Source of the DNA: Elizabethkingia sp. YR214
GTDB taxonomy: Bacteria > Bacteroidota > Bacteroidia > Flavobacteriales > Weeksellaceae
NCBI RefSeq assembly: GCF_003058195.1
Contig: NZ_QBUH01000002.1
Span: 310,001-374,000, forward strand
Direction: 5' to 3'
DNA: 64,000 bases
Made by a program: the position numbers and the translations under genes. The notes below the pieces were generated by a model. The model was not told the DNA's origin, ran no database searches, and worked only from the letters and a program-made list of their open reading frames with translations. The number at the start of each line of letters is the position of its first letter. Positions within the stretch are counted from its first letter, which is position 1. Below, piece by piece: positions 40,361 to 58,951 of this stretch.

Positions 40361-40430
40361 TCACGTAAAAGTGAAATAATTGTTTTTTATTAGAATTGAA
40401 TTACTTAAATTTATCCTAACCAAATAAATA
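40361..40430 (+). promoter_or_regulatory. Promoter/operator of GG-peptide gene 1
   Basis: The dyad TCAC-GTAAAA-GTGA lies at 40361-40374, a -7-like box TAAATTTA at 40406-40413, and TAACCAAATAAATA at 40417-40430, where the transcript should begin. The dyad-to-box distance (31 nt) is the same as in peptide gene 2. Confidence 0.6.
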
Positions 40431-40439: not shown

Positions 40440-40646
40440 ATGAAAAATTTAAAAAAGCTTTCAAGAGAAAGCCTAAAAGAAATTAGTGGTGGATATAGAA
40501 TGTGTCCCGAAGATGGAAATTGTGGTGATGGATTTTGTTGTGGACCAGGAGGCTGCAGAAGTATCGCCGGAGCGGGACCTGACACCTATTTATGTAGCCC
40601 TCCAACAAGTGGCCCAAAAATAGAGCCTTTTCCAATTGAATGGTAG
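40440..40646 (+). CDS. GG-leader cysteine-rich peptide 1 (knottin-like spacing)
   Basis: A 68-residue precursor. The leader MKNLKKLSRESLKEISGG fits the double-glycine consensus (LSxxELxxIxGG) cleaved by C39 peptidase/ABC exporters. The product after GG has six cysteines spaced C-x5-C-x4-CC-x4-C-x12-C, which falls in the inhibitor-cystine-knot range, then a proline-rich tail ending IEW. I start at 40440 rather than the ATG two codons earlier, which adds two residues to the leader. A secreted, disulfide-bonded toxin or signal is likely; no activity is demonstrated, and no exporter is nearby. Confidence 0.75.
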   Translation: MKNLKKLSRESLKEISGGYRMCPEDGNCGDGFCCGPGGCRSIAGAGPDTYLCSPPTSGPKIEPFPIEW

Positions 40647-40684
40647 TACTCTAGAGTGAAATACAGTTATAATTTGTTATAAAG

Positions 40685-40725
40685 AAACAGCAACTACTAC
40701 AGGAAAGTGAGTTGCTGTTTCATTT
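40685..40725 (+). terminator. Terminator of GG-peptide gene 1
   Basis: AAACAGCAACT (40685-40695) pairs with AGTTGCTGTTT (40710-40720). A related hairpin follows peptide gene 2. Confidence 0.75.
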
Positions 40726-40772
40726 ATGTTATAAATATTTTCATATAAGCATTTAAAAGCCATTATATAGAA

Positions 40773-40842
40773 TCACAAAAAAGTGAAATATTTATTTTTT
40801 ATTCAATTTCTATTATTTAACTTTATCCTAACCAAATAAATA
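40773..40842 (+). promoter_or_regulatory. Promoter/operator of GG-peptide gene 2
   Basis: The dyad TCAC-AAAAAA-GTGA at 40773-40786, the box TAACTTTA at 40818-40825 (31 nt after the dyad, as in gene 1), and TAACCAAATAAATA at 40829-40842. Confidence 0.6.
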
Positions 40843-40850
40843 TTAAGAAT

Positions 40851-41024
40851 ATGAAAAATTTAAAAAAAGTTTCAAGAGAGAATTTAAGAACAATTAATGG
40901 CGGGTATAGAATGTGCCCTGAAGATGGTAACTGCGGAGATGGCTTTTGCTGTGCACCAGGGGGCTGTAGAAGTATAGCCGGAGCAGGACCTAAAACATAT
41001 TTATGTTATGCTCCAATGTATTAG
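40851..41024 (+). CDS. GG-leader cysteine-rich peptide 2 (tandem copy of peptide 1)
   Basis: A 57-residue precursor starting MKNLKKVSRENLRTINGG. The product repeats peptide 1 almost residue for residue through its six cysteines (C22, C28, C33, C34, C39, C52), with Ala for Gly after the CC pair and Lys for Asp in the last loop, but stops five residues after the last cysteine and lacks the proline-rich tail. Promoter, leader and terminator are also shared, so the pair arose by duplication of a unit of about 410 bp. Confidence 0.75.
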   Translation: MKNLKKVSRENLRTINGGYRMCPEDGNCGDGFCCAPGGCRSIAGAGPKTYLCYAPMY

Positions 41025-41070
41025 TTGGGTACATAAAAGTTTATTTTAGTTATAATTTGTTATAGAAAGC

Positions 41071-41105
41071 AGCAACTACTTCAAGCAAGTAAGTTGCTTT
41101 TTTTA
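41071..41105 (+). terminator. Terminator of GG-peptide gene 2
   Basis: AGCAACT (41071-41077) and AGTTGCT (41092-41098), followed by a run of T. Confidence 0.75.
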
Positions 41106-41155
41106 TTACTACCGTGGTGTATAAGGATTTAAATATTAAGTGATTTTAACGAAAA

Positions 41156-41173
41156 GTCCCGATTGCTCGGGAC
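41156..41173. repeat. Short palindrome, REP-like
   Basis: GTCCCGA-TTGC-TCGGGAC is a perfect 7-bp inverted repeat in non-coding DNA without a T-tract on the plus strand. I recall similar GTCCCGA palindromes dispersed in related genomes; only one copy is seen here. Confidence 0.45.
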
Positions 41174-41369
41174 CCACCAAATCACATTTATTATATTATG
41201 AAAAATATAACTCTGTACTAAAGTTACGATATTTATTTACACATAATAATATTTTATTAAATTATTTTCACTGTAAATATCTATAATTACAGATTAAATT
41301 TAAGTTTCTGTTAATGAAAGTAATTAGCCAACTCATACTATGGATTCATATTGTGGTGTATATAATAAG

Positions 41370-41605
41370 GCTACGGAATAATTAAGATAGTTAAAGAAGG
41401 TGATAAGCTATACACTATTTTTCCAGCATTCCTATTTGCTTTAGAGCATGCATAATATGATTATTTCAGATTAAAGTTTACAGAAGAATTCCCAGAGCAA
41501 ATAAATCCTGATCTTAATTTTAGCTTTAGATTAAATAACAAAGGAGAGATTTCTGAATTAGAAATGAATATCCAGCAGGGAATAGTTTTCAAAAAAATAA
41601 AATAG
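41370..41605 (+). pseudogene. Decayed C-terminus of a serine hydrolase-like protein
   Basis: In one plus frame the DNA reads YGIIKIVKEGDKLYTIFP, a stop at 41453-41455, and then YDYFRLKFTEEFPEQ through DLNFSFRLNN to VFKKIK and a TAG at 41603-41605. This resembles the C-terminal (DUF3471-like) part of beta-lactamase-related serine hydrolases. It has an internal stop and no N-terminal domain, so it is a remnant. The family call is tentative. Confidence 0.55.
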
Positions 41606-41781
41606 TAACCTATTGAATAGAAAAGTGCTTTATAATAAATACAAAGCACTTCAAAGGTTGGTGTTTTAATTCTGTGTATGTTAATAAAGCAAATCCGGAA
41701 TAAGATATAAATAGGAAATATTAATTTTAAATACTTCTGCCGGAAGCTGTATTTGCCTGAATATTGATTCAGATTATTTTG

Positions 41782-41811
41782 CAAATATATAAATAAATCA
41801 CATAAATGTGA
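41782..41811 (-). promoter_or_regulatory. Orphan operator and -7 box
   Basis: A perfect TCAC-ATAAAT-GTGA dyad (41798-41811) stands 8 nt from a minus-strand TATATTTG box (41782-41789), the same arrangement as peptide genes 4 and 6. No ATG follows for 150 nt, and a hairpin (AAGTGCTTT/AAAGCACTT, 41623-41651) comes next. This could be a relic of a lost peptide gene or drive a short RNA. Confidence 0.45.
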
Positions 41812-41887
41812 AATTAGTTTTCCCAAAAACGATATTATTAATGATTTAAGTAGTAGAAGAGTGTCTCCATTAAATAGTGTTTCAAAA

Positions 41888-41912
41888 ATAAAAGCCCTCA
41901 ATCAAGAGGGCT
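41888..41912 (-). terminator. Terminator of GG-peptide gene 3
   Basis: AGCCCTC (41893-41899) and GAGGGCT (41906-41912) form a 7-bp stem; on the minus strand TTTTATTTTT follows. Confidence 0.8.
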
Positions 41913-41920
41913 CAATTATT

Positions 41921-42082
41921 TTATCCGTTTGGACAACATATTGGATATGGATCCGTTCCTCTTGGTAGGCATATGCTGGTAGGGCCATTACCATCATTGC
42001 ATACTGGGCAGAACATTCTGATACATCCGGTGCCACTACCACCGTTGATTTGTTTCAGTTCAGTCTTTGTAATTTTTCTCAT
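41921..42082 (-). CDS. GG-leader cysteine-rich peptide 3
   Basis: A 53-residue precursor beginning MRKITKTELKQINGG. After GG the six cysteines are spaced C-x4-C-x2-C-x9-C-x10-CC, and the peptide ends CCPNG. Peptide 4 has exactly the same framework, so the two are one family distinct from peptides 1 and 2. The start at 42082 follows the shared upstream motif; a longer frame from 42121 would read through that motif. Confidence 0.75.
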   Translation of the reverse strand: MRKITKTELKQINGGSGTGCIRMFCPVCNDGNGPTSICLPRGTDPYPICCPNG

Positions 42083-42090
42083 AATACTAA

Positions 42091-42138
42091 TATTTATTTG
42101 GTTAGATATAAAGATAATCATAATTCTATTAATTGTGA
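42091..42138 (-). promoter_or_regulatory. Promoter of GG-peptide gene 3
   Basis: On the minus strand: TAACCAAATAAATA (42104-42091), box TATCTTTA (42116-42109), and a weak dyad TCAC-N6-TAGA, two mismatches from the TCAC-N6-GTGA pattern (42125-42138), 8 nt upstream of the box. Confidence 0.5.
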
Positions 42139-42312
42139 TATATTTTTAATAAAAATTAAATTCTAACGTTTTCAGGTACTTATCTTTATTGCGTAAACAT
42201 TTATTAATGGTTTGGAAATATTTTTATTAAATGTCAGGCAAGGATTTAAAATTGTTGTATTTATATAAATGAGTACTCAAAGTAGAAATTTTTTAACCAA
42301 CAATTAATTCAA

Positions 42313-42906
42313 ATGAAAAAGTTCATAAATCTGAAAGCTTTTTTACAGCTTGTCATTTTATTAAGTATTCCTTTTATTCTTTCAAATTGCAGAAGCGATA
42401 ATGATAAAAGGGCAATCCCTATTCCCGGAGATCCAAAGGTTGAAGATGTTAATGGTAATTATGCCGGAAAACTAGGAATATCACAAGGTACTACTAAGAG
42501 TGAAATTAATGTGTCCTTTACAGCTCAAAAAAATATTGTTTCTTTTACCGAATTTCCGATGAAAGAGATTATTAGCTCAATAATTTCTGATCCTACTAAA
42601 GCCAATCAGGCCTTAGCTTCAATTGGTAAAGTTAAATATGAAGTTAGTTATACGGCAGTTTTGAGTAAATCAAAAAAGGAAGTAGAGCTTACCTTCTCAC
42701 CTAAAGATCTTACTTTCCAGGTTCCAATTGATGGGGTAAATAAAAAAGTAACAGTTACATTTGCCCAGATCAAACAAGGAATATTTATTAAGACTAAAAC
42801 ACAAAATCTTAATCTGGAATTAGGTGCCACTAAAATAACTGTTGAAGGAACTGCAGTTATTCCTTTTAATCAGATCGTATATAATTTTGCAATGTTGAAG
42901 AAATAA
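42313..42906 (+). CDS. DUF4840-like lipoprotein
   Basis: A 197-residue protein with a lipoprotein signal ending ILSNC. The body (VNGNYAGKLGISQGTTKSE, then FTEFPMKEIISSII) fits the DUF4840 group of Bacteroidetes surface lipoproteins as I remember it. Function unknown. It has its own terminator and stands between GG-peptide gene 3 and the ECF sigma gene. Confidence 0.65.
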   Translation: MKKFINLKAFLQLVILLSIPFILSNCRSDNDKRAIPIPGDPKVEDVNGNYAGKLGISQGTTKSEINVSFTAQKNIVSFTEFPMKEIISSIISDPTKANQALASIGKVKYEVSYTAVLSKSKKEVELTFSPKDLTFQVPIDGVNKKVTVTFAQIKQGIFIKTKTQNLNLELGATKITVEGTAVIPFNQIVYNFAMLKK

Positions 42907-42924
42907 AATAAAAAAGACTTGTTC

Positions 42925-42959
42925 GGGTGTACTTATACTAGTGTATGTACACCCTTTTT
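42925..42959 (+). terminator. Terminator after the DUF4840-like gene
   Basis: GGGTGTAC (42925-42932) and GTACACCC (42947-42954), followed by five T. Confidence 0.85.
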
Positions 42960-42986
42960 ACTCATTTAAATTTGAGAATACTATAG

Positions 42987-43556
42987 ATGCCCCAAGAAGA
43001 TAACCCAGAAATAAGGCTGGTGAAACGATTAGTTATAAAAGAGCAAATAGCATGGAAGGAATTGTATAATTCTTATTCAAGGGAGCTTACATCTGTATGC
43101 AGGAGATACCTGAAAGGGCAGGATGATATACACGATGTATTGCAAAATGGCTTTATAAAAATGTTTCACAATATAGATTCTTTTAAGTATATGGGACCAG
43201 GCTCTCTGAAAGCCTGGATAATGCGCATAATTATTAATGAGGTTTTACAATACATAAGAAAATTTTCAAAGATGGAATTTTCAACAGCTGACGAAGAGCT
43301 TACAATCTTAGAGAATGATGAAGAACCAGAGCTAACTGATTTTTCTATGGAAGATTTGCTCACAATGATAAGGTCATTACCTGATGGCTACAGAATTGTT
43401 TTTAATCTGTATGTATTTGAAAGTAAATCACACAAGGAAATTGCAGAATTACTTTCAATAAGTGAAGGATCATCGGCTTCTCAGTTACATAAAGCAAAAA
43501 GAAAGCTTGTACATCAAATTAATGCATGCAAACAATTAAAAGATAAAGGGCTATGA
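42987..43556 (+). CDS. ECF-type RNA polymerase sigma factor
   Basis: A 189-residue sigma-70 family protein: region 2 around QDDIHDVLQNGFIKMFHNI, region 4 around LPDGYRIVFNLYVFESKSHKEIAELL. Regions 1 and 3 are absent, as in ECF factors. Its last codon overlaps the start of the next gene (ATGA), which suggests that the neighbour regulates it. Its position among GG-peptide genes makes it a candidate regulator of them, but their promoters carry the ordinary -7 type box. Confidence 0.9.
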   Translation: MPQEDNPEIRLVKRLVIKEQIAWKELYNSYSRELTSVCRRYLKGQDDIHDVLQNGFIKMFHNIDSFKYMGPGSLKAWIMRIIINEVLQYIRKFSKMEFSTADEELTILENDEEPELTDFSMEDLLTMIRSLPDGYRIVFNLYVFESKSHKEIAELLSISEGSSASQLHKAKRKLVHQINACKQLKDKGL

Positions 43557-44866
43557 AAGACAAATGGTTAATAGACCTGAAGAATAAAATTGAAGGTCAT
43601 GAAGGCAATCCGCCAGAAGGATTATGGGAGAGTATTGAAAAAGAGCTCTTTCCGGATAATACAAATGATTATCATAAGCATAAGGTAAGATTAAAGTTAA
43701 GCTATATAATAAATACAATAGGTATTGCAGCAACCATTGCACTAGTGATTTCGCTAATATTTTTTTATGAGGAAAAAGAGACCACGGATAATAAAACTTT
43801 TGAAAAGCATATAAGTAATAAATCTGTAGAGCCCGATTTATTAGTACAACCTGTAAATGAAGGAATAAAGAAAAATATGCAGGATATTAATTATAAAGTA
43901 GATAATAAAGATACTCCACACATTATTGACAATAAAGTAATAAATAATCAGGTTATAATAAGTTTAAAAAAACAAAGTGAAGGTATAAAATCAACTTACA
44001 ATAACGATCATCAGTTTAATGAAGTTAAGAAAGATGGTATAAATAAATCAGAAGAATTAGTTCTGACTTCTATCATGAAAAATAAGAACGAGATTACTTC
44101 ATCAGTATCCGGGCAGCTTTCGGGAGGAGATTTTGTTCGGATTGAGAATGATGATCTAAAAAGCAGACCTATTCTCGATAGTAAATGGACATTAAATTTT
44201 ACTTCCCGGCAAACTGCATCTAATTCTTCAACTCAAAAAGGATATACTCTGATGAATGGGCCGCTTGAGACTTTACCAAATGATGGAGTAGAGGCTTCCG
44301 GAAGTCCGGTATCCGAGATACTATCTGAGAACATGAATCAGGATGTTAATACTAATATAAAGCACAGGCTTCCAATAAGAATTGGATTGTCAGTTTCTTA
44401 TCAGCTAAATGACAAATGGTCTGTTACAACCGGGCTTACATATACAAAACTTACTTCAGATCTTCTATCCGGAACTGATGCTAATCTGATTAAAAGTGAG
44501 CAGATTATAAAATACATCGGAGTTCCCGTACAGGTTAATTATAATATTTGGCAGAAAGGAAACTTAGCTGCTTATGCGGGTGCTGGTGTACAAATAGAGA
44601 AATCAATTTCCGGGCTCATGAATACCAATTATATTGTTCATCATCAGACAAAAGAAAGTACATCATCAAAAATTAGAATAAATTCGCTGCAAACCTCATT
44701 GAATATTGGGGTAGGCATGCAGTACAAAGTTTATAAAAACTTCGGTCTTTACTTAGAACCTGGTTTGCGTTATTATTTTAATGATGGTAGTGATGCTAAG
44801 ACTCTGTATAAAGATAGACCGCTAAATATGAATCTGGAATTTGGCGTGAGATATTTTATTCGATAA
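43553..44866 (+). CDS. Transmembrane protein with C-terminal outer-membrane-type beta barrel, probable anti-sigma partner
   Basis: A 437-residue protein. A cytoplasmic N-terminus of about 58 residues (start MKDKWLIDLKNKIEGHEG with GLWESIEKELF) precedes one transmembrane helix (about 59-72), a long low-complexity linker (75-260), and a C-terminal domain with strands typical of porin-family/PorT-like barrels (KWSVTTGLTYTKL, then LEFGVRYFIR). It overlaps the sigma gene by 4 bp. Such sigma-plus-barrel pairs recur in Bacteroidetes and the N-terminal part may bind sigma. That is inference. Confidence 0.75.
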   Translation: MKDKWLIDLKNKIEGHEGNPPEGLWESIEKELFPDNTNDYHKHKVRLKLSYIINTIGIAATIALVISLIFFYEEKETTDNKTFEKHISNKSVEPDLLVQPVNEGIKKNMQDINYKVDNKDTPHIIDNKVINNQVIISLKKQSEGIKSTYNNDHQFNEVKKDGINKSEELVLTSIMKNKNEITSSVSGQLSGGDFVRIENDDLKSRPILDSKWTLNFTSRQTASNSSTQKGYTLMNGPLETLPNDGVEASGSPVSEILSENMNQDVNTNIKHRLPIRIGLSVSYQLNDKWSVTTGLTYTKLTSDLLSGTDANLIKSEQIIKYIGVPVQVNYNIWQKGNLAAYAGAGVQIEKSISGLMNTNYIVHHQTKESTSSKIRINSLQTSLNIGVGMQYKVYKNFGLYLEPGLRYYFNDGSDAKTLYKDRPLNMNLEFGVRYFIR

Positions 44867-45036
44867 CTAAATTTAAACAAGTAAATGATATATGGAATAT
44901 CTATCATAAATTGTGTTTAATGGAGTAAAAAAAAATTTTGAAAGGATTATTTTGAATAGCAACAATAATAATTGTTATTAAATATAAATCATATAATATG
45001 AATTAGTATTTTTATGTCCGATCAAAATTTATAAAT

Positions 45037-45267
45037 ATGAATATTAAACTACTAATTTTTTCAATTTTTGTATTAAGCGCTAATGTTGCTTGTACAACAG
45101 ATAGAGATCAGGATTCACTAAATGCTGATGCTTCTGCTTCAATTAAAAATCTTTCTAATAAGATTAAGATAAAAAAGACACAATCTAATAAAACAGCGGA
45201 GAAAAAAATAACTCTAGCAGAGCCTGCTGAAACAATAGACCCAACAAAATCTGACAGACCGAAATAA
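45037..45267 (+). CDS. Small lipoprotein
   Basis: A 76-residue protein with a lipoprotein signal ending SANVAC and a lysine/threonine-rich, probably unstructured remainder ending KSDRPK. No family recognised. A shared terminator separates it from the convergent peptide gene 4. Confidence 0.6.
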   Translation: MNIKLLIFSIFVLSANVACTTDRDQDSLNADASASIKNLSNKIKIKKTQSNKTAEKKITLAEPAETIDPTKSDRPK

Positions 45268-45274
45268 AAAATAT

Positions 45275-45300
45275 AAGCCCTATTCCTAGGGCTTACTTTT
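45275..45300. terminator. Bidirectional terminator between the small lipoprotein and GG-peptide gene 4
   Basis: AAGCCCTA (45275-45282) and TAGGGCTT (45287-45294) with a TTCC loop, A-rich on the left and T-rich on the right. Confidence 0.8.
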
Positions 45301-45302
45301 TA

Positions 45303-45458
45303 TTATCCAAATGGGCAACATACGTCGTAGGAATTAGCTCCTATTGGAATGCATGCATAATAGGGTCCATCGTTATTATTACATTGTGGGCAAAATGCCA
45401 TATAACAAGCTTGACCGCCAGTGATTTTTCTTAAATCAGATTTCAGAATTTTTTTCAT
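45303..45458 (-). CDS. GG-leader cysteine-rich peptide 4
   Basis: A 51-residue precursor starting MKKILKSDLRKITGG. The mature part has six cysteines with the C-x4-C-x2-C-x9-C-x10-CC framework of peptide 3 and ends CCPFG. Between cysteines the residues differ widely from peptide 3, as expected for a diversifying toxin-like family. The start at 45458 is preceded by the shared TAACCAAATAAATA motif. Confidence 0.75.
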   Translation of the reverse strand: MKKILKSDLRKITGGQACYMAFCPQCNNNDGPYYACIPIGANSYDVCCPFG

Positions 45459-45463
45459 GATAA

Positions 45464-45510
45464 TATTTATTTGGTTAGATTGTAAATATATGAAAATCTC
45501 CATAAAGTGA
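45464..45510 (-). promoter_or_regulatory. Promoter/operator of GG-peptide gene 4
   Basis: On the minus strand: TAACCAAATAAATA (45477-45464), box TATATTTA (45490-45483) and, 6 nt upstream, a dyad with one mismatch (TCAC-TTTATG-GAGA, 45510-45497). Confidence 0.55.
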
Positions 45511-45601
45511 TTTAAGTTTGTGTATATAATTTAGATATACCATTTATGATAAAAAATGATTAAAAATTAAAAGATCTGTGGAAACATATAATGATAGAAA
45601 A

Positions 45602-45628
45602 TAAAAAACCCCTCAATAAAGAGGGGGG
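45602..45628 (-). terminator. Terminator of GG-peptide gene 5
   Basis: On the minus strand CCCCTC-TTTATT-GAGGGG is followed by TTTTTTATTTT. Confidence 0.85.
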
Positions 45629-45631
45629 GAT

Positions 45632-45778
45632 TTAACCGGGGCAATTAACCCATTTCCTTCCGTTCATGCAAACACCTAAACAAGAAACATAAACATATCT
45701 AGGTGGGCACACTATTTCAGTTTCACCACCATTAACTTTTTTTAAATCTTCTCTTTTTAGTTTTTTTAACTTTTTCAT
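45632..45778 (-). CDS. GG-leader cysteine-rich peptide 5
   Basis: A 48-residue precursor starting MKKLKKLKREDLKKVNGG. The mature part of about 30 residues has four cysteines spaced C-x8-C-x3-C-x8-C and ends NCPG, a third framework. A TATTTTTG box lies on the minus strand at 45812-45805, but the TAACCAAATAAATA element is only loosely matched (TAATCAAATATTA). A terminator follows within 10 bp. Confidence 0.7.
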   Translation of the reverse strand: MKKLKKLKREDLKKVNGGETEIVCPPRYVYVSCLGVCMNGRKWVNCPG

Positions 45779-45856
45779 GTTTTTAATATTTGATTATACA
45801 GGTTCAAAAATAAACATGGCAATAATTAAAAAATTGTAAAAATGGAACATCAGAAA

Positions 45857-46669
45857 TTAAGGCTTCAAATGCCAGAATGTATCTTCTTCCCCCAAAATAG
45901 TTCCTCTTGCAAAAAAAGATTTTGGAGAATTTGCAGTTAGATTTTTATATGTTTTGTTGAAATGAGATTGATCATTGAAATTAAATTCATAGGCCAATTG
46001 GGTGAAACTTTCTTTAGACTTTTCAAAAAGTTTTTTATTTATGGTTTGCCTGAAAAGTACTATTTCGTGAAGCTTTTTTACGGAAATACCTAAATGTTGC
46101 TGAAAAAGCCTATTTAAATGTTGTCTGCTGATTTGGAGCTCATTTGATAATTCTGCAACTGAAAATTCTTCATAATAGCGGAATATATATTCTATGGATT
46201 TTTCAATAATTATGTTTTCAAATTTCTCAAATCTGTTCTCTAAAAAGCTGTCCAATGAATTGGTAAGTGTATCCGTTGCACATAGTGAGAAAATTTTTCT
46301 AAGTTCAGTTTGGGTGAAAAATTCATAATCTGTGATAAACCCTGAAAAATCTAAATTCTTATAAAATTGCTGGACTCCAAGAGGGTGAAAGATAATGACG
46401 ATTCTCTCAATTTTTCCTAGTTGTTTTACATTCAGAACTGTCGTTCGAATTGGTGTGAAAATCTGAAATGGTACCGCTGCTTGATCAAAAACCATTTCTC
46501 CATCCCTTAATCGGATATGGGATTTATAAAGCGATATAGTATTGTTAAAATGAGGAAAACATTGAAATTCATTGACTTCATTGTTAGGTTTGACATCCAG
46601 GTAATAATAGTCAACATACTTTTTGACAATGGGATTTACCGGCTTGAATGTTTCAAATATTTCCTTCAT
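45857..46669 (-). CDS. AraC-family transcriptional regulator
   Basis: A 270-residue regulator. The C-terminal third has two helix-turn-helix motifs (FSVAELSNELQISRQHLNRLF and FTQLAYEFNFNDQSHFNKTYK). The N-terminal part (VNPIVKKYVDYYYLDV, then IIFHPLGVQQFYK) fits the DUF6597-like sensor domain common in Bacteroidetes AraC proteins. It sits between GG-peptide genes 5 and 6, so it is a candidate for control of the TCAC-N6-GTGA dyads. No direct evidence. Confidence 0.88.
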   Translation of the reverse strand: MKEIFETFKPVNPIVKKYVDYYYLDVKPNNEVNEFQCFPHFNNTISLYKSHIRLRDGEMVFDQAAVPFQIFTPIRTTVLNVKQLGKIERIVIIFHPLGVQQFYKNLDFSGFITDYEFFTQTELRKIFSLCATDTLTNSLDSFLENRFEKFENIIIEKSIEYIFRYYEEFSVAELSNELQISRQHLNRLFQQHLGISVKKLHEIVLFRQTINKKLFEKSKESFTQLAYEFNFNDQSHFNKTYKNLTANSPKSFFARGTILGEEDTFWHLKP

Positions 46670-46816
46670 CTTTTATTGGCAATATTTTCTAAAATAGGTT
46701 ATATTCTATCAATAGTTAAAAATACAAAAAATGCAATATCATGGACATTGATTTTTACTTGTCCTGTCTTGAAATAGCTTAATGCAAAGTTATTTTGGAA
46801 TAGGATAATTTTCATA

Positions 46817-46904
46817 GGTTCAAGATGGTCAATTTTGCAGGATTCTAGAAGCCACCGAAGCAGCAATTAAAAGGCTGTTGAAATTTACAATGAGAGGGAA
46901 ATAA
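46817..46904 (+). pseudogene. Short gene-tail remnant
   Basis: One plus frame reads QDGQFCRILEATEAAIKRLL to FTMRGK and TAA at 46902-46904, with protein-like composition but no start. It may be the tail of a lost gene. The family is unknown. Confidence 0.3.
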
Positions 46905-46931
46905 AAAAGGAGATAGAAATCCTATCTCCTT
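46903..46931 (-). terminator. Terminator of GG-peptide gene 6
   Basis: AAGGAGATAG (46907-46916) pairs with CTATCTCCTT (46922-46931); on the minus strand TTTTTTAT follows. Nearly the same hairpin follows peptide gene 7. Confidence 0.85.
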
Positions 46932-46949
46932 AATTAATTAAATAAATGA

Positions 46950-47138
46950 CTAACAAGAAGCTAAACACTCTCTAGCCCCAGCTTCATCTGCTGTAACAAA
47001 TTTTACGAATCCGAAAGGTCCAGTTCCACAATTACAAGCAACATAAGTATCTCTTGGAATTTGATACCCTCCATTAATGGCTTTCAACTGACTTCTGTTT
47101 AGTGCGCTATTAGCATTTAATTTCTTGAACTTTTTCAT
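46950..47138 (-). CDS. GG-leader cysteine-containing peptide 6
   Basis: A 62-residue precursor beginning MKKFKKLNANSALNRSQ and continuing LKAINGG, the longest leader of the set. After GG come four cysteines in the pattern C-x1-C and C-x3-C at the two ends (ACNCGTG and ECLASC), separated by about 19 residues. Promoter, upstream element and terminator match the others. Confidence 0.7.
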   Translation of the reverse strand: MKKFKKLNANSALNRSQLKAINGGYQIPRDTYVACNCGTGPFGFVKFVTADEAGARECLASC

Positions 47139-47145
47139 TATTTGA

Positions 47146-47192
47146 AATTTGTTGGTTAAGTTGTAAATATAGGTAATTTCACAATGCTGTGA
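47146..47192 (-). promoter_or_regulatory. Promoter/operator of GG-peptide gene 6
   Basis: On the minus strand: TTAACCAACAAATTT (47160-47146 region), box TATATTTA (47171-47164), and 7 nt upstream a perfect dyad TCAC-AGCATT-GTGA (47192-47179). Confidence 0.6.
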
Positions 47193-47309
47193 TTTAACAT
47201 AAAAAAATAATTAAAATTAGATAATATATCTACTGTATAAATACAAAAAGCTTTCATATAAGCTATTTATGCAGCCAAAATAAAATAGTTAAATATATAG
47301 CGATTGGAA

Positions 47310-47338
47310 ATAAAAAGGAGATAGAAACCCTATCTCCT
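47310..47338 (-). terminator. Terminator of GG-peptide gene 7
   Basis: AGGAGATAG (47316-47324) and CTATCTCCT (47330-47338), with T-rich DNA following on the minus strand. A near copy of the hairpin after gene 6. Confidence 0.8.
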
Positions 47339-47348
47339 AAATTTTAAA

Positions 47349-47530
47349 TTAACATGGAACAGCCCATGCACCAGCAACACATCGAGGTTGAGCTGGTGTA
47401 ACACAGGCGCTGCAGCCATGACTGTTACAACACATGTAGCCTTGACCTCCGCCTTCGCCAGTTCCTGCATCAGTGAGTTTAATTAGTCCTCCAATCATGT
47501 TTTTTAGTTCTTTTCTAGCTAGTTTTTCAT
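47349..47530 (-). pseudogene. GG-leader cysteine-rich peptide 7, frameshifted at codon 3
   Basis: From the ATG at 47530 the minus strand reads ATGAAAAACTAG, an immediate stop. One extra A would give KKLARKELKNMIGG, a regular double-glycine leader, followed by a mature part with six cysteines spaced CC-x4-C-x2-C-x7-C-x8-C and a stop at 47351-47349. Box TAGTTTTA (47562-47555) and a variant upstream element (TACTAAATAAATA) are present. So the gene is intact except for one missing base in an A-run: a recent inactivation, a slippage-controlled gene or a sequencing error. Confidence 0.65.
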
Positions 47531-50600: not shown

Positions 50601-50647
50601 GTGGAGAATACGGGATTCGAACCCGTGACCTTTTGACTGCCAGTCAA
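50601..50647. repeat. Left attachment site (47-bp direct repeat of tRNA-Ala 3' part)
   Basis: The 47 bp are identical to 60194-60240, which is the 3' part of tRNA-Ala(GGC) from the anticodon arm onwards. The two copies bound the element at 50.6-60.2 kb. Confidence 0.92.
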
Positions 50648-50758
50648 TATGTCTTACTTTAACAAGAATGTAAACCGTTTATTATTAAGTGTTTAAGTAT
50701 GTTGATTGTTATATGAAACAATATTTATGTTGCCGGATGTTACCGATTTTGTTACCGA

Positions 50759-51226: not shown

Positions 51227-51934
51227 TTACATTACTAATCTTTCAAACTTTGCCCAAGCTATAACCTGGTAGAATCTAGCCACAAAATCCATAGGTATTT
51301 CTTCACTTTCATATCCAGCCTTGTCGTATTCAATTAAAGGACATGGTATTAATACTAGGTTATTTTTATTTTCTTTACTTCTCTTAACTAATTTTACGGT
51401 TCGTAAATCGTTTTTAGTTACTATTCCATACAACTCATTAGTTAGAAAGTAAGTTTGCCAATTAAATATCTCCTTAAATCCGACAACAGAGCCACTAGGT
51501 ATGATTTGCGAAATAGAATTTCCAGATAAATTGCACGCAAATTCAGCTCTTTCAAAGTTTGGACTTGTTATATAAAAAGAAGGAGGAGACATCGAAAATA
51601 CCTCATCGGAACGCCATCCTCCGGAAAAATCAACATCATAATAAGGTACTTTGACTTTACTTTCTGATGGAGGAAATAACTCACTTGAAATAACGCTGTT
51701 GTGTGATTCTTTAATAGAATCTATAATAAAATCACTCTTATTTAATCCAAAAGTTGTAAAAAAGTTGTCTAAAAAATCATCTGGAACAGGTTTTTTTCCT
51801 TTTAAAAAATTCGAAACATTGCTTTTGTCATAGTTCGTTTTTTCAGATATTTCCTTGTTTGGAAACCTTAAACTCAAATACTGCACTGCTTTTTGAAATA
51901 TTTCAGTGTTTCTATCTTGCTTAAAATCAGTCAT
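51227..51934 (-). CDS. CI/LexA-like phage repressor (XRE + S24 peptidase domains)
   Basis: A 235-residue protein. Residues 1-70 form an HTH (NKEISEKTNYDKSNVSNFLKG). The C-terminal half is an S24 self-cleavage/dimerisation domain with the Ser in LSGNSISQIIPSG and a Lys in TVKLVKRSK. The start at 51934 places the HTH at the usual distance; an ATG at 52006 would read through the operator region. It should hold the element silent and be cleaved on DNA damage. It is divergent from the ORF at 52082. Confidence 0.82.
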   Translation of the reverse strand: MTDFKQDRNTEIFQKAVQYLSLRFPNKEISEKTNYDKSNVSNFLKGKKPVPDDFLDNFFTTFGLNKSDFIIDSIKESHNSVISSELFPPSESKVKVPYYDVDFSGGWRSDEVFSMSPPSFYITSPNFERAEFACNLSGNSISQIIPSGSVVGFKEIFNWQTYFLTNELYGIVTKNDLRTVKLVKRSKENKNNLVLIPCPLIEYDKAGYESEEIPMDFVARFYQVIAWAKFERLVM

Positions 51935-51954
51935 GTGTGTTTTTATTGTAATAA

Positions 51955-51998
51955 AGTTGTAATAATATTTGGATAGTTGTAAATAAGTTGTATATTTG
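51955..51998. promoter_or_regulatory. Operator repeats and rightward promoter of the element
   Basis: AGTTGTA occurs three times in direct orientation (51955, 51975 and 51986), and the last runs into a TATATTTG box at 51991-51998 driving rightward transcription. This is the expected site for repressor binding between the divergent genes. Confidence 0.6.
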
Positions 51999-52081
51999 TA
52001 AAACAATTACGATACAAATGTATGAAAAAGATGGTAATTGTTAGTTACGGAATTCCGTAAAGTGATTAAAACCGAAATGAT

Positions 52082-52249
52082 ATGAGTATAAGAATAGGTG
52101 AATTAATTGACAGCGAAGTATCACAATTGCTAATTGACTTCACTGATAGAGTGGATAGAGCTGAAGCAAGTGTTTCTACTGGAGTCGGCACCTCAACGTT
52201 ACGAGATATTACATACAGAACTAATGTAGTTATCGGCATCCTAATTTAG
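52082..52249 (+). CDS. Truncated Cro-position small protein
   Basis: A 55-residue ORF starting MSIRIGELIDSEVSQLL, followed by the HTH-like SVSTGVGTSTLRDITYRT. It occupies the cro/first-early-gene place, divergent from the repressor. Coding character stops at about codon 52, where a different reading frame takes over, so its natural C-terminus is probably missing. Confidence 0.5.
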   Translation: MSIRIGELIDSEVSQLLIDFTDRVDRAEASVSTGVGTSTLRDITYRTNVVIGILI

Positions 52250-52401
52250 AAGTCGATTTGGTGAAAAGTAAAGTGAAACCATTTATTAAGTCAGATGCTA
52301 ATCAATCCGGAGACATTTCTAAGGAGGATAGACCAGGCGATACTGGACGCACCAAAGCTGATAACGGAAGCTCTGGCAGAAAGCCAATTAGTAAAGCTTA
52401 A
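52237..52401 (+). pseudogene. Orphan C-terminal fragment at a deletion junction
   Basis: In a second plus frame 52237-52401 reads HPNLEVDLVKSKVKPFIKSD to GRKPISKA and stop. It has no start and overlaps the next gene by about 107 bp, as the end of an upstream phage morphogenesis gene would. It looks like the tail of a lost gene joined to the truncated 52082 ORF. Confidence 0.45.
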
Positions 52402-52747
52402 TACTGAAAATTTACAACAGGGTCTTGATAGTGAGGGGGCTAATATGCCTCCTTACAAAGATCCGGATTATGCCAACTTTAAAGTATCAATAAACCCCCG
52501 AAATCGTGGGTTTTGGGATTTAAAAGTAATGGGGGATTACTACAGAGGTATTCGCGTAACCATTAAATCTGGGACTGTACATTTTGAACAATCCATCAAG
52601 AATGAAAAAACGCTTTGGATTGAATCTAAGACAACAGCTATGGGATTGAAGCCTTTAGGGGTGCCGGAATGGCAATTGAAAGAGGTTCAAATGAAGAACA
52701 TCCCAATAATTAAAGAGAAACTATTAAAGAAAATAAATGGCGTGTAA
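52295..52747 (+). CDS. Phage-type protein, possibly virion morphogenesis
   Basis: A 150-residue basic protein. MLINPETFLRRIDQAILDA at the start and EGANMPPYKDPDYANFK then NPRNRGFWDLKVMGDYYRG resemble phage head- or tail-completion proteins, but I cannot name a family. It overlaps the next gene by 11 bp. Confidence 0.55.
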   Translation: MLINPETFLRRIDQAILDAPKLITEALAESQLVKLNTENLQQGLDSEGANMPPYKDPDYANFKVSINPRNRGFWDLKVMGDYYRGIRVTIKSGTVHFEQSIKNEKTLWIESKTTAMGLKPLGVPEWQLKEVQMKNIPIIKEKLLKKINGV

Positions 52748-52973
52748 TTGCAGTAAGACCGTATCTGTTTCAGACTGCCAAATATTGAAGGAATTCAAGG
52801 AAGACGGCAGAATGTTCATCTATCATATTTTCGATGATAAACGAGGTTTAGAAGTGGCATATGTGCCAGAAGATAAAACGCCTAACCAAATAGCCATTGA
52901 GCGAAAGTTTTTCAATGAAAACAACATGCTTGAATGGTTTTATATATCAGAACACCCATGCCTTTATGAATGA
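52737..52973 (+). CDS. Small element protein of unknown function
   Basis: A 78-residue protein with an N-terminal CNCSK. Overlaps its neighbours on both sides (11 and 8 bp), so it belongs to a tightly packed operon. No family recognised. Confidence 0.55.
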   Translation: MACNCSKTVSVSDCQILKEFKEDGRMFIYHIFDDKRGLEVAYVPEDKTPNQIAIERKFFNENNMLEWFYISEHPCLYE

Positions 52974-53271
52974 ATTTGAAAAAGATATATTAAATCAGGT
53001 AGAACATAGATTATTATCAATTGATATCGTTTGCTATTATGTAATCAAGGGAACCTATGAGGCAAGGATAAAGGAAGTTACCACTGAAAAAAAAGACTGT
53101 GTAGATGAGAATAAATATCTCGTCTACAGTCTTCTTGAAAAGAATAATATCATTGAGAAAAAAGATCAGGCCTTGAGGGAACAAAAGGATTCTGCCAAAA
53201 TCAATGATAGCCTTGACAGTGATTACATAAAGAAAGCACAACCGCTTATCAATAAAATTCTAAAACATTAA
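52966..53271 (+). CDS. Coiled-coil element protein
   Basis: A 101-residue helical protein (start at 52966, overlapping the previous stop). Its last 16 residues (YIKKAQPLINKILKH) resemble the end of the protein at 55052-55732 (FYNKARPLVKEILKH), so the two probably share a module. Function unknown. Confidence 0.55.
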   Translation: MNEFEKDILNQVEHRLLSIDIVCYYVIKGTYEARIKEVTTEKKDCVDENKYLVYSLLEKNNIIEKKDQALREQKDSAKINDSLDSDYIKKAQPLINKILKH

Positions 53272-53275
53272 TGCA

Positions 53276-54106
53276 ATGAAAACTAAAAATACAATTATCG
53301 GAATATTGGTACTTGCATGTATTATACTAATAGCAAATACCTTTTACGGATGGTTCAATCCAACAAGTAAAGAGAAAGAGTATTCAGAGTATCTTAAACA
53401 TAAAGATATGCCTTTATCGGAAACACTGCCTAAAACTAAATTTAAAGATAAGGATAGTGTAAATCATATACAGATGCCAGAGAAGCCGTCTTTGAACTAT
53501 GAAAACACCGTTAAATCTTCTACAAAGCAGGAAATTCAGGAAAAAACTTTGAAAGCGTTAAATGCAAAATCCGAAGATTTACAAGAATTTACCAAAGTTA
53601 AAGCTGTAATCTCCGGTACTCTTCCTTCTGCAGATGTAAAGATTGACAATAAGATAGTCACTATTACATATCAGAATAAATATTTAAAAATAGTCTCAAG
53701 ACAAAACCCTGACGGGAAATCTGAGGCGGATTATCAGTATAAGGCAGAGTTCAATTATACTAAAGTTGAGAAGAAAAACAAAATATTCTTCTGGCAAAAG
53801 CCTGAAACAGTACTAGATTTCAGTAGCCCAGATCCCAACTTTACTCCTACTGATATTGAACATTTTAAAAAGTTTGTAGAACCGCAGCGGGATAGACTTC
53901 AATTAGTACTGGAAAACCAAATTCAATTCGGTATAAAAAATCCGAATATGAATAGTTTTTCTTCTGGGGTATCGCTTAGACTTAATCCAGATGGCTTTGT
54001 TAGTCCAAATGTAGGGACTGGTTTTATTTGGCAATTCAATAACGGTCAAATGATGAAATATTTCAAGGTAGGAGCTGACATAAACATCATGAGAATTAAA
54101 AAGTAA
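53276..54106 (+). CDS. Membrane-anchored element protein
   Basis: A 276-residue protein with an N-terminal transmembrane helix (IIGILVLACIILIANTFYGWF), a charged linker and a beta-rich C-terminal domain (SFSSGVSLRLNPDGFVSPN). It lies 6 bp upstream of the endolysin, where lysis-accessory or spanin-like genes occur. Function is not known. Confidence 0.6.
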   Translation: MKTKNTIIGILVLACIILIANTFYGWFNPTSKEKEYSEYLKHKDMPLSETLPKTKFKDKDSVNHIQMPEKPSLNYENTVKSSTKQEIQEKTLKALNAKSEDLQEFTKVKAVISGTLPSADVKIDNKIVTITYQNKYLKIVSRQNPDGKSEADYQYKAEFNYTKVEKKNKIFFWQKPETVLDFSSPDPNFTPTDIEHFKKFVEPQRDRLQLVLENQIQFGIKNPNMNSFSSGVSLRLNPDGFVSPNVGTGFIWQFNNGQMMKYFKVGADINIMRIKK

Positions 54107-54112
54107 GAAACC

Positions 54113-54727
54113 ATGACTAAACTAGAATTAAGAAATAAGCTGCAGAAGATAGGAGCTAATATGTCTAATGTGCCTGAGGATCTATTTGAGCAAATGGAGA
54201 AATACGGTCTTAAAACAGACGAAGATAAATTCCGGTTCCTGGCAAACTGTTTAAATGAAACAGGAGGCTTTAAAGTATTCAAAGAGAATCTATTTTATAC
54301 TACACCTTCAAGATTGGTTGCGATATTTCCGTCAGCCTTCCGTTCAAAGTATAATCCAAATGAATATCTACGGAATTCTGTAAAACTTGCTAACCTGGTA
54401 TATGACGACCGGAAATTCCCGAAAGGATTAGGTAATATCTACGACGGAGACGGATCTAAATTCATCGGCCGTGGAGCAATCCAGACAACTGGGCGCAATA
54501 ATTATACTCAGCTATCAAAAGATACCGGAATTGACTTCGTTTCGCATCCGGAATGGCTGGAAAAACCGCCGTACAATTTTATTTCTGCATTGTACTACTG
54601 GAAAAAACACAACTTATCAGCAAAGCCTTCATTGTTGACTACACGACAAGTTATTGCTGGAAATTACACTAATAATCCCTTCGGGTTTAGTGAGGTGCTC
54701 AGGTGGTATAATAAGCTGAAAGTATAA
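54113..54727 (+). CDS. GH19 family endolysin (chitinase-like lysozyme)
   Basis: A 204-residue protein without signal peptide. The GH19 core is plain: the catalytic Glu in FLANCLNETGGF, then FIGRGAIQTTGRNNYTQLS and NPFGFSEVLRWY. In phages this fold cleaves peptidoglycan for lysis. It lies in a plus-strand operon with small membrane proteins, some of which could act as holin or spanin. Confidence 0.88.
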   Translation: MTKLELRNKLQKIGANMSNVPEDLFEQMEKYGLKTDEDKFRFLANCLNETGGFKVFKENLFYTTPSRLVAIFPSAFRSKYNPNEYLRNSVKLANLVYDDRKFPKGLGNIYDGDGSKFIGRGAIQTTGRNNYTQLSKDTGIDFVSHPEWLEKPPYNFISALYYWKKHNLSAKPSLLTTRQVIAGNYTNNPFGFSEVLRWYNKLKV

Positions 54728-54777
54728 TTTTTTTTGTTTAACAAAAATTAACGTATTTTTGACGCCATTCGATAATA

Positions 54778-55071
54778 ATGGCAAGAAAGAGTAATAAGAA
54801 TAATAATACTTTTGAATTTTTCAAAATAATAGGTTCAAGTACAGGAGCTATTATTACTATTGCTACATTAATGTCAATGTGTGTTGGAGCAGGTACTTTT
54901 TTAACCAAATTAATTAAGGATCGTGAAATTTTGGAAATTAATACTAACAACTCTCTTCAGGTAATTGATAAAAGTAGGGAAATTTCAGAATTAAAGATAG
55001 AGAATAAAGAATTGAGGTATAAATTAAAAATTGATTCAATTTCATATTATAATGAGAAAAGAAAAAAATAA
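54778..55071 (+). CDS. Single-helix, coiled-coil protein, holin- or spanin-like
   Basis: A 97-residue protein with a basic N-terminus, one hydrophobic helix (about 18-42) and a coiled-coil tail. It follows the endolysin by 50 bp and its end overlaps the next gene by 20 bp. A lysis-accessory role is inferred from position and topology. Confidence 0.55.
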   Translation: MARKSNKNNNTFEFFKIIGSSTGAIITIATLMSMCVGAGTFLTKLIKDREILEINTNNSLQVIDKSREISELKIENKELRYKLKIDSISYYNEKRKK

Positions 55072-55732
55072 AAATAAAGATAAATCTTTGTCGCAAATTC
55101 TAAAGGAAATAGAATCTAATATTGATATACTGAAAGATTATCCCGATGATTCAGTTAAGAAATCTGCTGAGAACCTATCTGTGGATTTAAAAGAAGGGAG
55201 AAAGGCAGTAAGAGGATTAAATACATTCTTAGCCTTTGTAACATCTATAGCTGTTATAGCTGTTATTTTTTCCGTTATAATAAGTGCCCAATATACTAAC
55301 TTGTTAAAAGAAAGAAATGATACTCTTTTTAAAAGAGTAAAATATACTCAAGACTCCTTAAAAGATAAGTTATTAAATATTAGTAAGAATGATTCATTAT
55401 CTGAGTTTTCATATTATGTTGACGATAAAGGAAGGCCTATAACTTATGGTGCAATGGTTCGAAAAAGAGATAGTGTTATAAACATTCTATATGATAAAGA
55501 AAAAGAAATCGTTAAACTTCAAGATTCTGTTGGTGACTTTAAAATATTCAAGAAAGTATTATATGAAAATTACGGAATAATATTGAGCAAAAGGAACGAG
55601 GGTAATAGTATAATATATTCTGCAAAATCTAAAAAACTAACAAAATATATAGAGGAGAATGAATCATTTTATAATAAAGCTAGACCACTGGTAAAAGAAA
55701 TATTGAAACATGATACAGTTCGAAGAAAATAA
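55052..55732 (+). CDS. Membrane-anchored coiled-coil element protein
   Basis: A 226-residue protein (start at 55052) with a cytoplasmic helical N-terminus, one transmembrane helix (about residues 58-82) and an extracytoplasmic coiled coil. The C-terminus resembles that of the 52966-53271 product. The topology is like an inner-membrane spanin, but no lipoprotein partner is evident beside it. Confidence 0.6.
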   Translation: MRKEKNKNKDKSLSQILKEIESNIDILKDYPDDSVKKSAENLSVDLKEGRKAVRGLNTFLAFVTSIAVIAVIFSVIISAQYTNLLKERNDTLFKRVKYTQDSLKDKLLNISKNDSLSEFSYYVDDKGRPITYGAMVRKRDSVINILYDKEKEIVKLQDSVGDFKIFKKVLYENYGIILSKRNEGNSIIYSAKSKKLTKYIEENESFYNKARPLVKEILKHDTVRRK

Positions 55733-55757
55733 TTTCTAATCAAAAAATGAGATGTTT

Positions 55758-55788
55758 AAAAACCCTAGCACGAGTTGCCAGGGTTTTT
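55758..55788 (+). terminator. Terminator of the endolysin operon
   Basis: AAAAACCCT (55758-55766) and AGGGTTTTT (55780-55788) form a 9-bp stem ending in T. Confidence 0.8.
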
Positions 55789-55823
55789 AATGTAAAATAT
55801 TATAGATTTGTTTTAAAAAAAAT

Positions 55824-56417: not shown

Positions 56418-56433
56418 CTACATATTAATAAAC

Positions 56434-56458
56434 GCCTCCCCACAGAGGCTTTTTTTTT
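56434..56458 (+). terminator. Terminator after the 55824 gene
   Basis: GCCTC (56434-56438) and GAGGC (56445-56449) followed by nine T. Confidence 0.8.
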
Positions 56459-56468
56459 CCAGAATTTG

Positions 56469-58432: not shown

Positions 58433-58442
58433 AATTAATAAT

Positions 58443-58853: not shown

Positions 58854-58870
58854 AGAAAACTCTTTTAATA

Positions 58871-58896
58871 AACCCCGACTAACCTCGGGGTTTTTC
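58871..58896 (+). terminator. Terminator after the 58443 gene
   Basis: AACCCCGA (58871-58878) and TCGGGGTT (58885-58892), followed by TTTCTTTT. Confidence 0.85.
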
Positions 58897-58943: not shown

Positions 58944-58951
58944 AATTTTTA

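What the first reader, a model, noticed from the sequence alone, without database searches (positions are those of the whole stretch)
40440..47530. A seven-gene array of GG-leader, cysteine-rich peptides
Seven tiny genes (40440, 40851, 42082-, 45458-, 45778-, 47138-, 47530-; minus-strand starts marked with -) encode double-glycine leaders matching LSxxELxxIxGG and short products with four or six cysteines. Cys frameworks differ: C-x5-C-x4-CC-x4-C-x12-C (twice), C-x4-C-x2-C-x9-C-x10-CC (twice), C-x8-C-x3-C-x8-C, CxC...CxxxC, and CC-x4-C-x2-C-x7-C-x8-C. Even cysteine counts suggest disulfides. No modification enzyme, C39 peptidase or immunity gene is present. The leader is known biology; an arsenal of folded, disulfide-rich bacteriocin- or signal-like peptides in a flavobacterium is the inference. 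At 48-68 residues these genes are easily missed by gene callers.
Basis: partly seen in the sequence, partly recalled or inferred. Interest (0 to 1): 0.88.

Follow-up and report, generated by a model that had tools for sequence, protein, structure and literature searches.

The report
Disulfide-rich peptides sharing one export operon
A cluster of tiny genes in an Elizabethkingia genome makes exported peptides with even numbers of cysteines; they are part of a set of about forty such genes scattered over the genome that probably share a single operon which cuts, exports and disulfide-bonds them.

Summary
Observation largely right. Six of the seven reported genes are open, with a double-glycine leader and even cysteines; 100 random windows of like dinucleotide make-up give 0.03 such ORFs on average. 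The seventh (47530) is broken: its ATG is out of frame with its leader; an intact relative exists. The leader is already catalogued (NCBIfam NF047798).
'No C39 peptidase' holds for the window only. The genome (Elizabethkingia) has three C39 domains and at least 40 such precursors. One C39-ABC exporter lies in an operon with HlyD, a VKOR-thioredoxin protein and six GG/Cys precursors. Similar loci recur in other genera; in four genomes of one of them a homologue of window genes 1 and 2 lies between VKOR and exporter. Leader and VKOR co-occur (34 of 158 genomes have both, 3 and 7 only one). Cores evolve under purifying selection (pN/pS 0.07).
Best reading: dispersed precursors served by one cut-export-oxidise hub, like bacteroidetocin systems but with many substrates. 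Activity is untested; antagonism is plausible, not shown.

The parts
40440..40646 (+). g1: GG-leader precursor, 68 aa; leader 40440-40493, mature 40494-40643; Cys spacing 5-4-0-4-12. An upstream in-frame ATG lies at 40434
   Evidence: (NF047798 36.6 bits, cut-off 23.5); relatives in L104, L105, L106
40851..41024 (+). g2: GG-leader precursor, 57 aa; mature 40905-41021; same Cys spacing as g1
   Evidence: (37.7 bits); a profile of g1/g2 cores finds homologues inside the hub locus of four genomes of another genus
41921..42082 (-). g3: GG-leader precursor, 53 aa; Cys spacing 4-2-9-10-0
   Evidence: NF047798 18.3 bits, under the cut-off 23.5
45303..45458 (-). g4: GG-leader precursor, 51 aa; paralogue of g3, Cys spacing 4-2-9-10-0
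   Evidence: no NCBIfam hit
45632..45778 (-). g5: GG-leader precursor, 48 aa; Cys spacing 8-3-8
   Evidence: (28.8 bits); relative in L104 with spacing 6-3-8
46950..47138 (-). g6: GG-leader precursor, 62 aa; Cys spacing 1-20-3; also at the cut-off of TIGR04149 (25.1 against 25)
   Evidence: relative in L104
47349..47531 (-). g7: broken precursor; open frame with GG leader and six Cys, not in frame with the ATG at 47530
   Evidence: relative with an ATG in frame in L107; no NCBIfam hit
40419..40427 (+). shared upstream motif ACCAAATAA ahead of g1
   Evidence: (13 of 32 precursor upstreams, 2 of 177 other ORF upstreams)
40831..40839 (+). shared upstream motif ACCAAATAA ahead of g2
42094..42102 (-). 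shared upstream motif ACCAAATAA ahead of g3
45467..45475 (-). shared upstream motif ACCAAATAA ahead of g4

Best explanation
The window genes are precursors of exported, disulfide-bonded mini-proteins. They are part of a dispersed set of at least 40 precursor genes in this Elizabethkingia genome that share one hub operon elsewhere on the chromosome (own contig C6). Proposed order: (1) the GG leader brings each precursor to the C39-ABC exporter, which cuts after the double glycine and passes the core through the HlyD adaptor (and an outer-membrane channel encoded elsewhere, not searched for); (2) the VKOR-thioredoxin fusion beside it oxidises the cysteines to disulfides. Its N-terminus, which resembles C39 in more distant relatives and has no conserved cysteine, may hold the leader. 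Shown here: operon content, conserved active-site cysteines, even-cysteine rule, co-occurrence, linkage of g1/g2-type peptides to the hub in another genus, purifying selection. Inferred: that this hub handles the window peptides, the order of steps, the disulfide bonds themselves. Most likely role: antagonism of related bacteria, like bacteroidetocins (about 0.5); the activity is untested.
For: Own hub L043, on one strand: GG peptide, C39-ABC, five GG peptides, HlyD, VKOR-Trx; domains VKOR 9e-12, Thioredoxin_4 5.2e-6, C39 1.7e-31. Six Cys of VKOR-Trx invariant in 22 of 22 proteins aligned. I fetched 20 of the 26 hub loci outside the genus with a VKOR match under 1e-100: a C39-ABC match in 19 (one a fragment at the stretch's edge), HlyD in 18, at least one GG/Cys ORF in 17; 41 of the 43 such ORFs have even Cys (the pattern asked for at least 3 Cys). 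Own genome 35 of 35 even; three relatives, best 30 loci of each, 29 of 29, 29 of 30 and 28 of 28 after dropping one enzyme-like ORF and the hits without ATG; control 62 of 106 proteins even. Leader in 37 of 158 genomes, VKOR in 41 of 158, both in 34 (Fisher p 3.5e-24, which ignores relatedness). All four genomes outside the genus with a homologue of the g1/g2 core have it between VKOR and C39-ABC. Core pN/pS 0.073. Cys 12.0% of own mature residues against 0.59% in ORFs of 100 aa or more. C39-like N-terminus in 9 of 9 more distant VKOR relatives at E<=0.1, best 1.3e-12, two over Pfam's cut-off.
Against: The hub is not in the window, and nothing tests directly that it handles these six peptides. 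The genome has a second C39-ABC with a radical SAM protein (L044), which could handle some, g6 above all. Three of the 20 fetched hub loci (L219, L220, L229) show no GG/Cys ORF by my pattern, and in L223, L224 and L229 VKOR and exporter lie 3 to 8 kb apart. The four outside homologues of g1/g2 come from one genus and three of them are near-identical. This family's own VKOR N-terminus has no C39 match at E<=0.01, and its profile comparison with the exporter's C39 domain was not significant (hhalign probability 0.4%, E 0.14). Mature peptides are net acidic (K+R 6.7%, D+E 10.4%), and in the comparisons made their cores are more conserved than the leaders, unlike fast-evolving toxins. Three leader genomes lack the VKOR protein and seven VKOR genomes lack the leader; some weak VKOR matches are fragments with stops. 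The genomes are related, so co-occurrence is not independent evidence. AlphaFold models were weak (pLDDT 61.9 and 79.1).
Confidence: 0.74

Rival explanations
1. The peptides are signals (pheromones) or other conserved extracellular mini-proteins, such as protease inhibitors or metal binders, exported by the same hub; they do not kill.
For: In the pairs compared the cores are nearly unchanged while synonymous sites differ (core pN/pS 0.073; the three g1 and g2 comparisons show no amino-acid change in the core); cores net acidic; no immunity gene recognised in the own hub, where the spaces between C39-ABC and HlyD hold precursors.
Against: The G005 relatives of g1 and g2, not used, do differ in the core. 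About forty different cores per genome are many for signals; I saw no receptor partner beside them, but did not search for one. The bacteroidetocin producers studied also seem to lack immunity genes (PMC6671954, passages).
Confidence: 0.35
2. Some of the window peptides, g6 first, are precursors of a radical-SAM-modified RiPP, handled by the second C39-ABC/radical SAM pair (own contig C13), not plain disulfide peptides.
For: g6 passes the TIGR04149 cut-off by 0.1 bit and has a Pfam Bacteroid_pep trace (E 0.0019, 18.9 bits against 25); L044 holds C39-ABC next to radical SAM/SPASM.
Against: That radical SAM protein fits no NCBIfam maturase over its cut-off among the best 25 shown (best 165.3 against 600). 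Two leader scans found no GG precursor beside it, though the scan also missed g3 and g4 and so is not complete. Five of the six open window genes show no TIGR04149 match.
Confidence: 0.12
3. The window array is a decaying remnant: precursors without use, carried along near a mobile element.
For: g7 is broken; an integrase lies about 11 kb away, with phage-like genes from about 4 kb.
Against: Purifying selection on the cores and matching blocks in three other Elizabethkingia genomes.
Confidence: 0.05

Closest known systems
Bacteroidetocins (class IIf bacteriocins), PMC6671954 (passages read)
   Same: Bacteroidota; GG leader of 15 aa, mature core of 42 aa with four cysteines (A and B); C39-type ABC exporter and a thiol oxidoreductase in the locus; no immunity gene found
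   Different: There one peptide per four-gene locus with a five-TM protein; here about 40 precursors spread over the genome, 4 to 8 Cys, many frameworks, a VKOR-thioredoxin fusion and HlyD in the hub, and no five-TM gene seen inside the own hub. Killing shown there, untested here. Homology of the two oxidoreductases was not tested
NCBIfam NF047798 leader_Chryseo ('bacteriocin-like protein') and NF047792 CCPGW family
   Same: g1, g2 and g5 pass the NF047798 cut-off, so the leader family is already catalogued
   Different: The model covers the 18-residue leader only; cores, hub operon and VKOR link are not part of it. No window peptide passes the CCPGW cut-off (best 24.4 against 80)
Class II microcins / peptidase-containing ABC transporter (PCAT) substrates
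   Same: GG leader, C39-ABC plus HlyD export from a Gram-negative cell (recalled; papers seen as listings)
   Different: A VKOR-thioredoxin gene in the operon and many dispersed substrates
Graspetide precursors of Chryseobacterium ('chryseoviridins'), PMC8939145 (passages)
   Same: Small precursors, some with GG motifs and cysteines, in the same part of the tree
   Different: Those lie in ATP-grasp loci; no ATP-grasp enzyme was among the hub genes scanned
Inhibitor cystine knot (knottin) peptides
   Same: Eight of 35 own peptides (g1 and g2 among them) have the order C-C-CC-C-C; its link to knottins is recalled
   Different: No structural support: AlphaFold pLDDT 61.9 for g2, no Foldseek match with E<=0.001, no knottin among the six weak PDB sequence matches of g1

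Membership tests
NCBIfam NF047798 leader family | score over the curated cut-off 23.5 bits | tested here: met
   g1, g2, g5 over it; g3 and g6 matched below it; g4 and the open frame of g7 without a hit. Genome: 14 matches over it, 36 with E<=1
Bacteroidetocins (class IIf) | GG leader and short core with an even number of Cys | tested here: met
Bacteroidetocins (class IIf) | C39-ABC exporter and thiol oxidoreductase beside the peptide gene | tested here: not met
   Not beside the window genes; met for other precursors of the same genome in L043, and for g1/g2 homologues in four genomes of another genus
Bacteroidetocins (class IIf) | five-TM protein gene in the locus | tested here: inconclusive
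   Between C39-ABC and HlyD of the own hub the other ORFs of 40 aa or more lie on the opposite strand and overlap precursors or hub genes; TM numbers of flanking genes were not computed
Bacteroidetocins (class IIf) | sequence similarity to bacteroidetocins A-D | not tested
   no bacteroidetocin sequence was fetched
Bacteroidetocins (class IIf) | kills Bacteroidales | not testable with these tools
   needs bench work
VKOR family (hub oxidase, not in the window) | VKOR domain, loop Cys pair, CxxC and thioredoxin CxxC | tested here: met
   PF07884 9e-12, PF13462 5.2e-6; Cys 178, 192, 259, 262, 371, 374 in 22 of 22; their roles are recalled
C39 peptidase exporter (hub) | catalytic Cys, His and Asp of the C39 domain, ABC domains | tested here: met
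   domains; DCGPTC, HFVV and SDP present in all 19 aligned C39 domains; their roles are recalled
Inhibitor cystine knot | knotted I-IV, II-V, III-VI fold | tested here: inconclusive
   order C-C-CC-C-C in 8 of 35; model confidence too low
TIGR04149 rSAM-modified RiPP | score over the cut-off and a partner radical SAM gene nearby | tested here: inconclusive
   g6 25.1 against 25; no such gene among the window ORFs whose families were scanned; other window ORFs were judged by reading only

The most novel reading that the evidence does not exclude
A one-hub, many-substrates disulfide peptide system: one operon (C39-ABC, HlyD, and a VKOR-thioredoxin with a degenerate C39-like leader-docking domain) cuts, exports and oxidises some forty unlike mini-proteins, several with knottin-like cysteine order, encoded in scattered patches. 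It would be a bacterial analogue of a venom-type peptide library built on a constant leader and variable cores.
Probability: 0.5. Interest if true: 0.8.

Novelty: new variant of a known kind. Interest (0 to 1): 0.63.

Why it matters
If right, it names the exporter and the disulfide-forming enzyme for a large class of tiny genes now labelled only 'bacteriocin-like protein', turns an unexplained array into a testable pathway (two gene removals should abolish the whole peptide set), and points to a large natural set of folded disulfide mini-proteins in this bacterial family. The proposed leader-docking domain on a VKOR enzyme would explain how one oxidase chooses its substrates.

Tried and rejected

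First extraction of relatives' peptides ignored strand and gave wrong frames; replaced. Left out of the parity count: three hits without ATG (own_L011 with six Cys, G005_L134 very short, G001_L177 with four Cys) and, by hand, G001_L192 (264-aa enzyme-like ORF, no Cys, which the script counted as even). The one odd case, G004_L144, looks by eye like a homologue of own_L007 with a different C-terminus. The 36th own hit (in an 828-aa ORF) was dropped. Searches gave 37, 50 and 42 matches; peptides were read for the best 30 of each. One search used nine pairs chosen by me; g5 (unequal length), the G001 relative of g4 and the G005 relatives of g1 and g2 were not compared.

Knottin fold: not supported. 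Foldseek of the g3 model: no match with E<=0.001. The second structural aligner was unavailable.

C39-like nature of the VKOR N-terminus by hhalign against the exporter's C39 domain: not significant; weak to good Pfam matches in more distant relatives. The hub VKOR protein has no PDB sequence match at E<=0.01.

DUF805b RNA as a specific switch of this system: rejected. In eight hub loci, picked because I had seen a repeated upstream sequence there, all 15 matches sit just ahead of GG/Cys genes. But the RNA occurs in 116 of 158 genomes. Ahead of the 30 loci taken, my filter flagged 9 GG/Cys ORFs; by eye four of these are signal-peptide proteins and one more GG-like ORF was missed. The own genome has none at E<=0.01.

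Inverted repeat TCAC-N4-8-GTGA as operator: 4 of 32 precursor upstreams against 0 of 177, too few to claim. The 32 leave out four of 36 leader hits for which that script found no ATG.

Papers: among the titles and abstract starts listed (20 of 77; 15 of 70; 15 of 18; 2; 15 of 230; 10; 12 of 571) I saw none on this system in Elizabethkingia or Chryseobacterium; two searches gave no paper. PMC6671954 and PMC8939145 were seen as passages only; the rest as listings.


Full report
What is in the window. Six small ORFs at 40440+, 40851+, 42082-, 45458-, 45778- and 47138- have a basic leader ending in GG and a core with four or six cysteines. A pattern for such ORFs, drawn up with them in view, finds exactly these six in 64 kb, and a mean of 0.03 in 100 random sequences of like dinucleotide make-up. 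The seventh reported gene is broken: its ATG is out of frame with the leader-and-core frame, while a relative in G005 has an ATG in frame. The leaders of g1, g2 and g5 pass the NCBIfam model NF047798, 'bacteriocin-like protein', so the leader type is known. I found no C39 exporter in the window, but the rest of the genome has them.

They look like real genes. Relatives of g1, g3 and g4 lie in matching blocks of three other genomes of the genus; g2 is near-identical in one (G001), with a diverged second copy in the other two; g5 and g6 were found in one (G004). In nine comparisons covering five genes the cores carry 71 synonymous and 19 non-synonymous differences (pN/pS 0.073), and the leaders 23.5 and 20.5 (0.217). 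The pairs share window genes and are not independent, and the more diverged G005 copies of g1 and g2 were not among them. The genus rests on two named records, E. occulta G4070 and E. miricola GTC_862, whose hub VKOR is 98% and 96% identical to the one here.

They are part of a genome-wide set. The leader model has 36 matches with E<=1 in this genome, 14 over its cut-off. Reading out the ORFs gave 35 with an ATG (g4 added by hand); five more were seen by pattern, so at least 40. All 35 have an even number of core cysteines (16 with four, 18 with six, one with eight). In three relatives, from the best 30 loci of each, it is 29 of 29, 29 of 30 and 28 of 28 after dropping an enzyme-like ORF. Among 106 longer proteins of these loci with two or more Cys, 62 are even. 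Paralogues and orthologues are not independent, but there are many different spacings. Cys makes up 12.0% of core residues against 0.59% in longer ORFs.

The hub. The genome has three C39 domains. One belongs to an operon in L043 that reads, in the direction of transcription: GG/Cys peptide, C39-ABC, five GG/Cys peptides, HlyD, VKOR-thioredoxin. Pfam gives C39 1.7e-31, HlyD_3 2.2e-14, VKOR 9e-12 and Thioredoxin_4 5.2e-6. Between C39-ABC and HlyD the precursors fill most of the space; other ORFs of 40 aa or more there lie on the opposite strand and overlap them or the hub genes. The second C39-ABC stands beside a radical SAM/SPASM gene (L044) and the third is a 274-aa piece (L045).

The hub is conserved and tied to these peptides. 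I fetched 20 of the 26 loci outside the genus with a VKOR match under 1e-100. C39-ABC (79-91% identical) was found in 19, one of them a fragment at the edge; HlyD in 18; at least one GG/Cys ORF in 17 (none in L219, L220 and L229). Of 43 such ORFs 41 have even Cys (the pattern itself asked for at least three Cys). The gene order differs from the own hub: VKOR comes first there, and in three loci (L223, L224, L229) it lies 3 to 8 kb from the exporter. The six VKOR/thioredoxin cysteines are invariant in 22 of 22 proteins and are the only columns with Cys in half or more. Among 158 genomes of the family, 37 have the leader (E<=0.01), 41 have the VKOR protein (E<=1e-5, some as fragments) and 34 have both. 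All 30 genomes with a VKOR match under 1e-100 have the leader. Relatedness inflates this; in the own genus four genomes have both and two have neither. A profile of the g1/g2 core finds homologues in eight of 158 genomes, four outside the genus, all of one genus. In all four the gene lies between VKOR and C39-ABC; three of the four are near-identical. This is the most direct link between the window's peptides and the hub. More distant VKOR relatives occur in 40 of 395 genomes of the phylum sampled (E<=1e-20).

How it probably works. The leader brings the precursor to the C39-ABC protein, which cuts after GG and exports the core with HlyD; the VKOR-thioredoxin protein oxidises the cysteines. 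The VKOR protein's N-terminus resembles C39 in 9 of 9 more distant relatives (best 1.3e-12, two over the cut-off, five only at 0.001 to 0.05) and has no conserved cysteine in the hub family. It may dock leaders. Against that, the own protein has no C39 match at E<=0.01 and the direct profile comparison was not significant. Shown: gene content, conservation, linkage, even cysteines, selection. Inferred: steps, substrates, disulfides, activity.

Function. The nearest tested systems are bacteroidetocins (PMC6671954, passages): GG leader, four Cys, C39-type ABC exporter, thiol oxidoreductase, no immunity gene found, and killing of Bacteroidales. The likeness supports antagonism. Net acidic, conserved cores leave room for signals or other extracellular roles. 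I hold antagonism at about one half. Membership in class IIf is not claimed: the locus layout differs, and neither sequence similarity nor killing was tested.

Other signals. ACCAAATAA lies in the 90 bases ahead of 13 of 32 precursors and 2 of 177 other ORFs, which suggests a shared upstream leader; in the window it occurs seven times, four of them ahead of g1-g4. Three of four precursors with a TCAC-GTGA inverted repeat upstream are in this window. Structure models were weak and gave no structural relative; a knottin-like fold is only a possibility drawn from cysteine order in 8 of 35 peptides.

Verdict. A correct and valuable observation with one broken gene, a known leader family, and a system-level link to a VKOR-containing export hub that I did not see among the papers listed by my searches (several lists were capped). 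New variant of a known kind.

Noticed in passing
L222, L231, L226, L218, L217, L221, L215, L223: All 15 matches to Rfam DUF805b RNA (RF02914) in these eight chosen hub loci lie about 20 nt ahead of a GG/Cys precursor start, yet the RNA is general in the family (116 of 158 genomes) and precedes other genes too. Among 37 leader genomes its copy number follows the leader count (Spearman 0.65).
   Followed up: partly
L044:2006-5498: A second C39-ABC exporter next to a radical SAM/SPASM protein that fits no named maturase over its cut-off among the best 25 shown; no GG precursor seen beside it.
   Followed up: partly
L045:9272-10096: A 274-aa piece of a third C39-ABC protein: peptidase and start of the membrane domain only.
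   Followed up: no
window 51227-60268: Probable integrated element: phage-type integrase (58952-60097) beside tRNA-Ala (60194), a regulator with a weak S24 trace below the cut-off (51227-52006) and a GH19-like lysin (54113-54727).
   Followed up: no
window 50610-50664: Marginal tRNA-like match, 29.7 bits against 29, E 0.077; perhaps a tRNA remnant near the element's left end.
   Followed up: no
L043:509-1399: A Rce1-like (CPBP) membrane protease gene, a family that includes bacteriocin self-immunity proteins (recalled), lies 370 bp ahead of a GG/Cys precursor.
   Followed up: no
window 42987-44866: An ECF sigma factor followed by an outer-membrane beta-barrel protein lies inside the peptide array; whether it regulates the peptides is unknown.
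   Followed up: no
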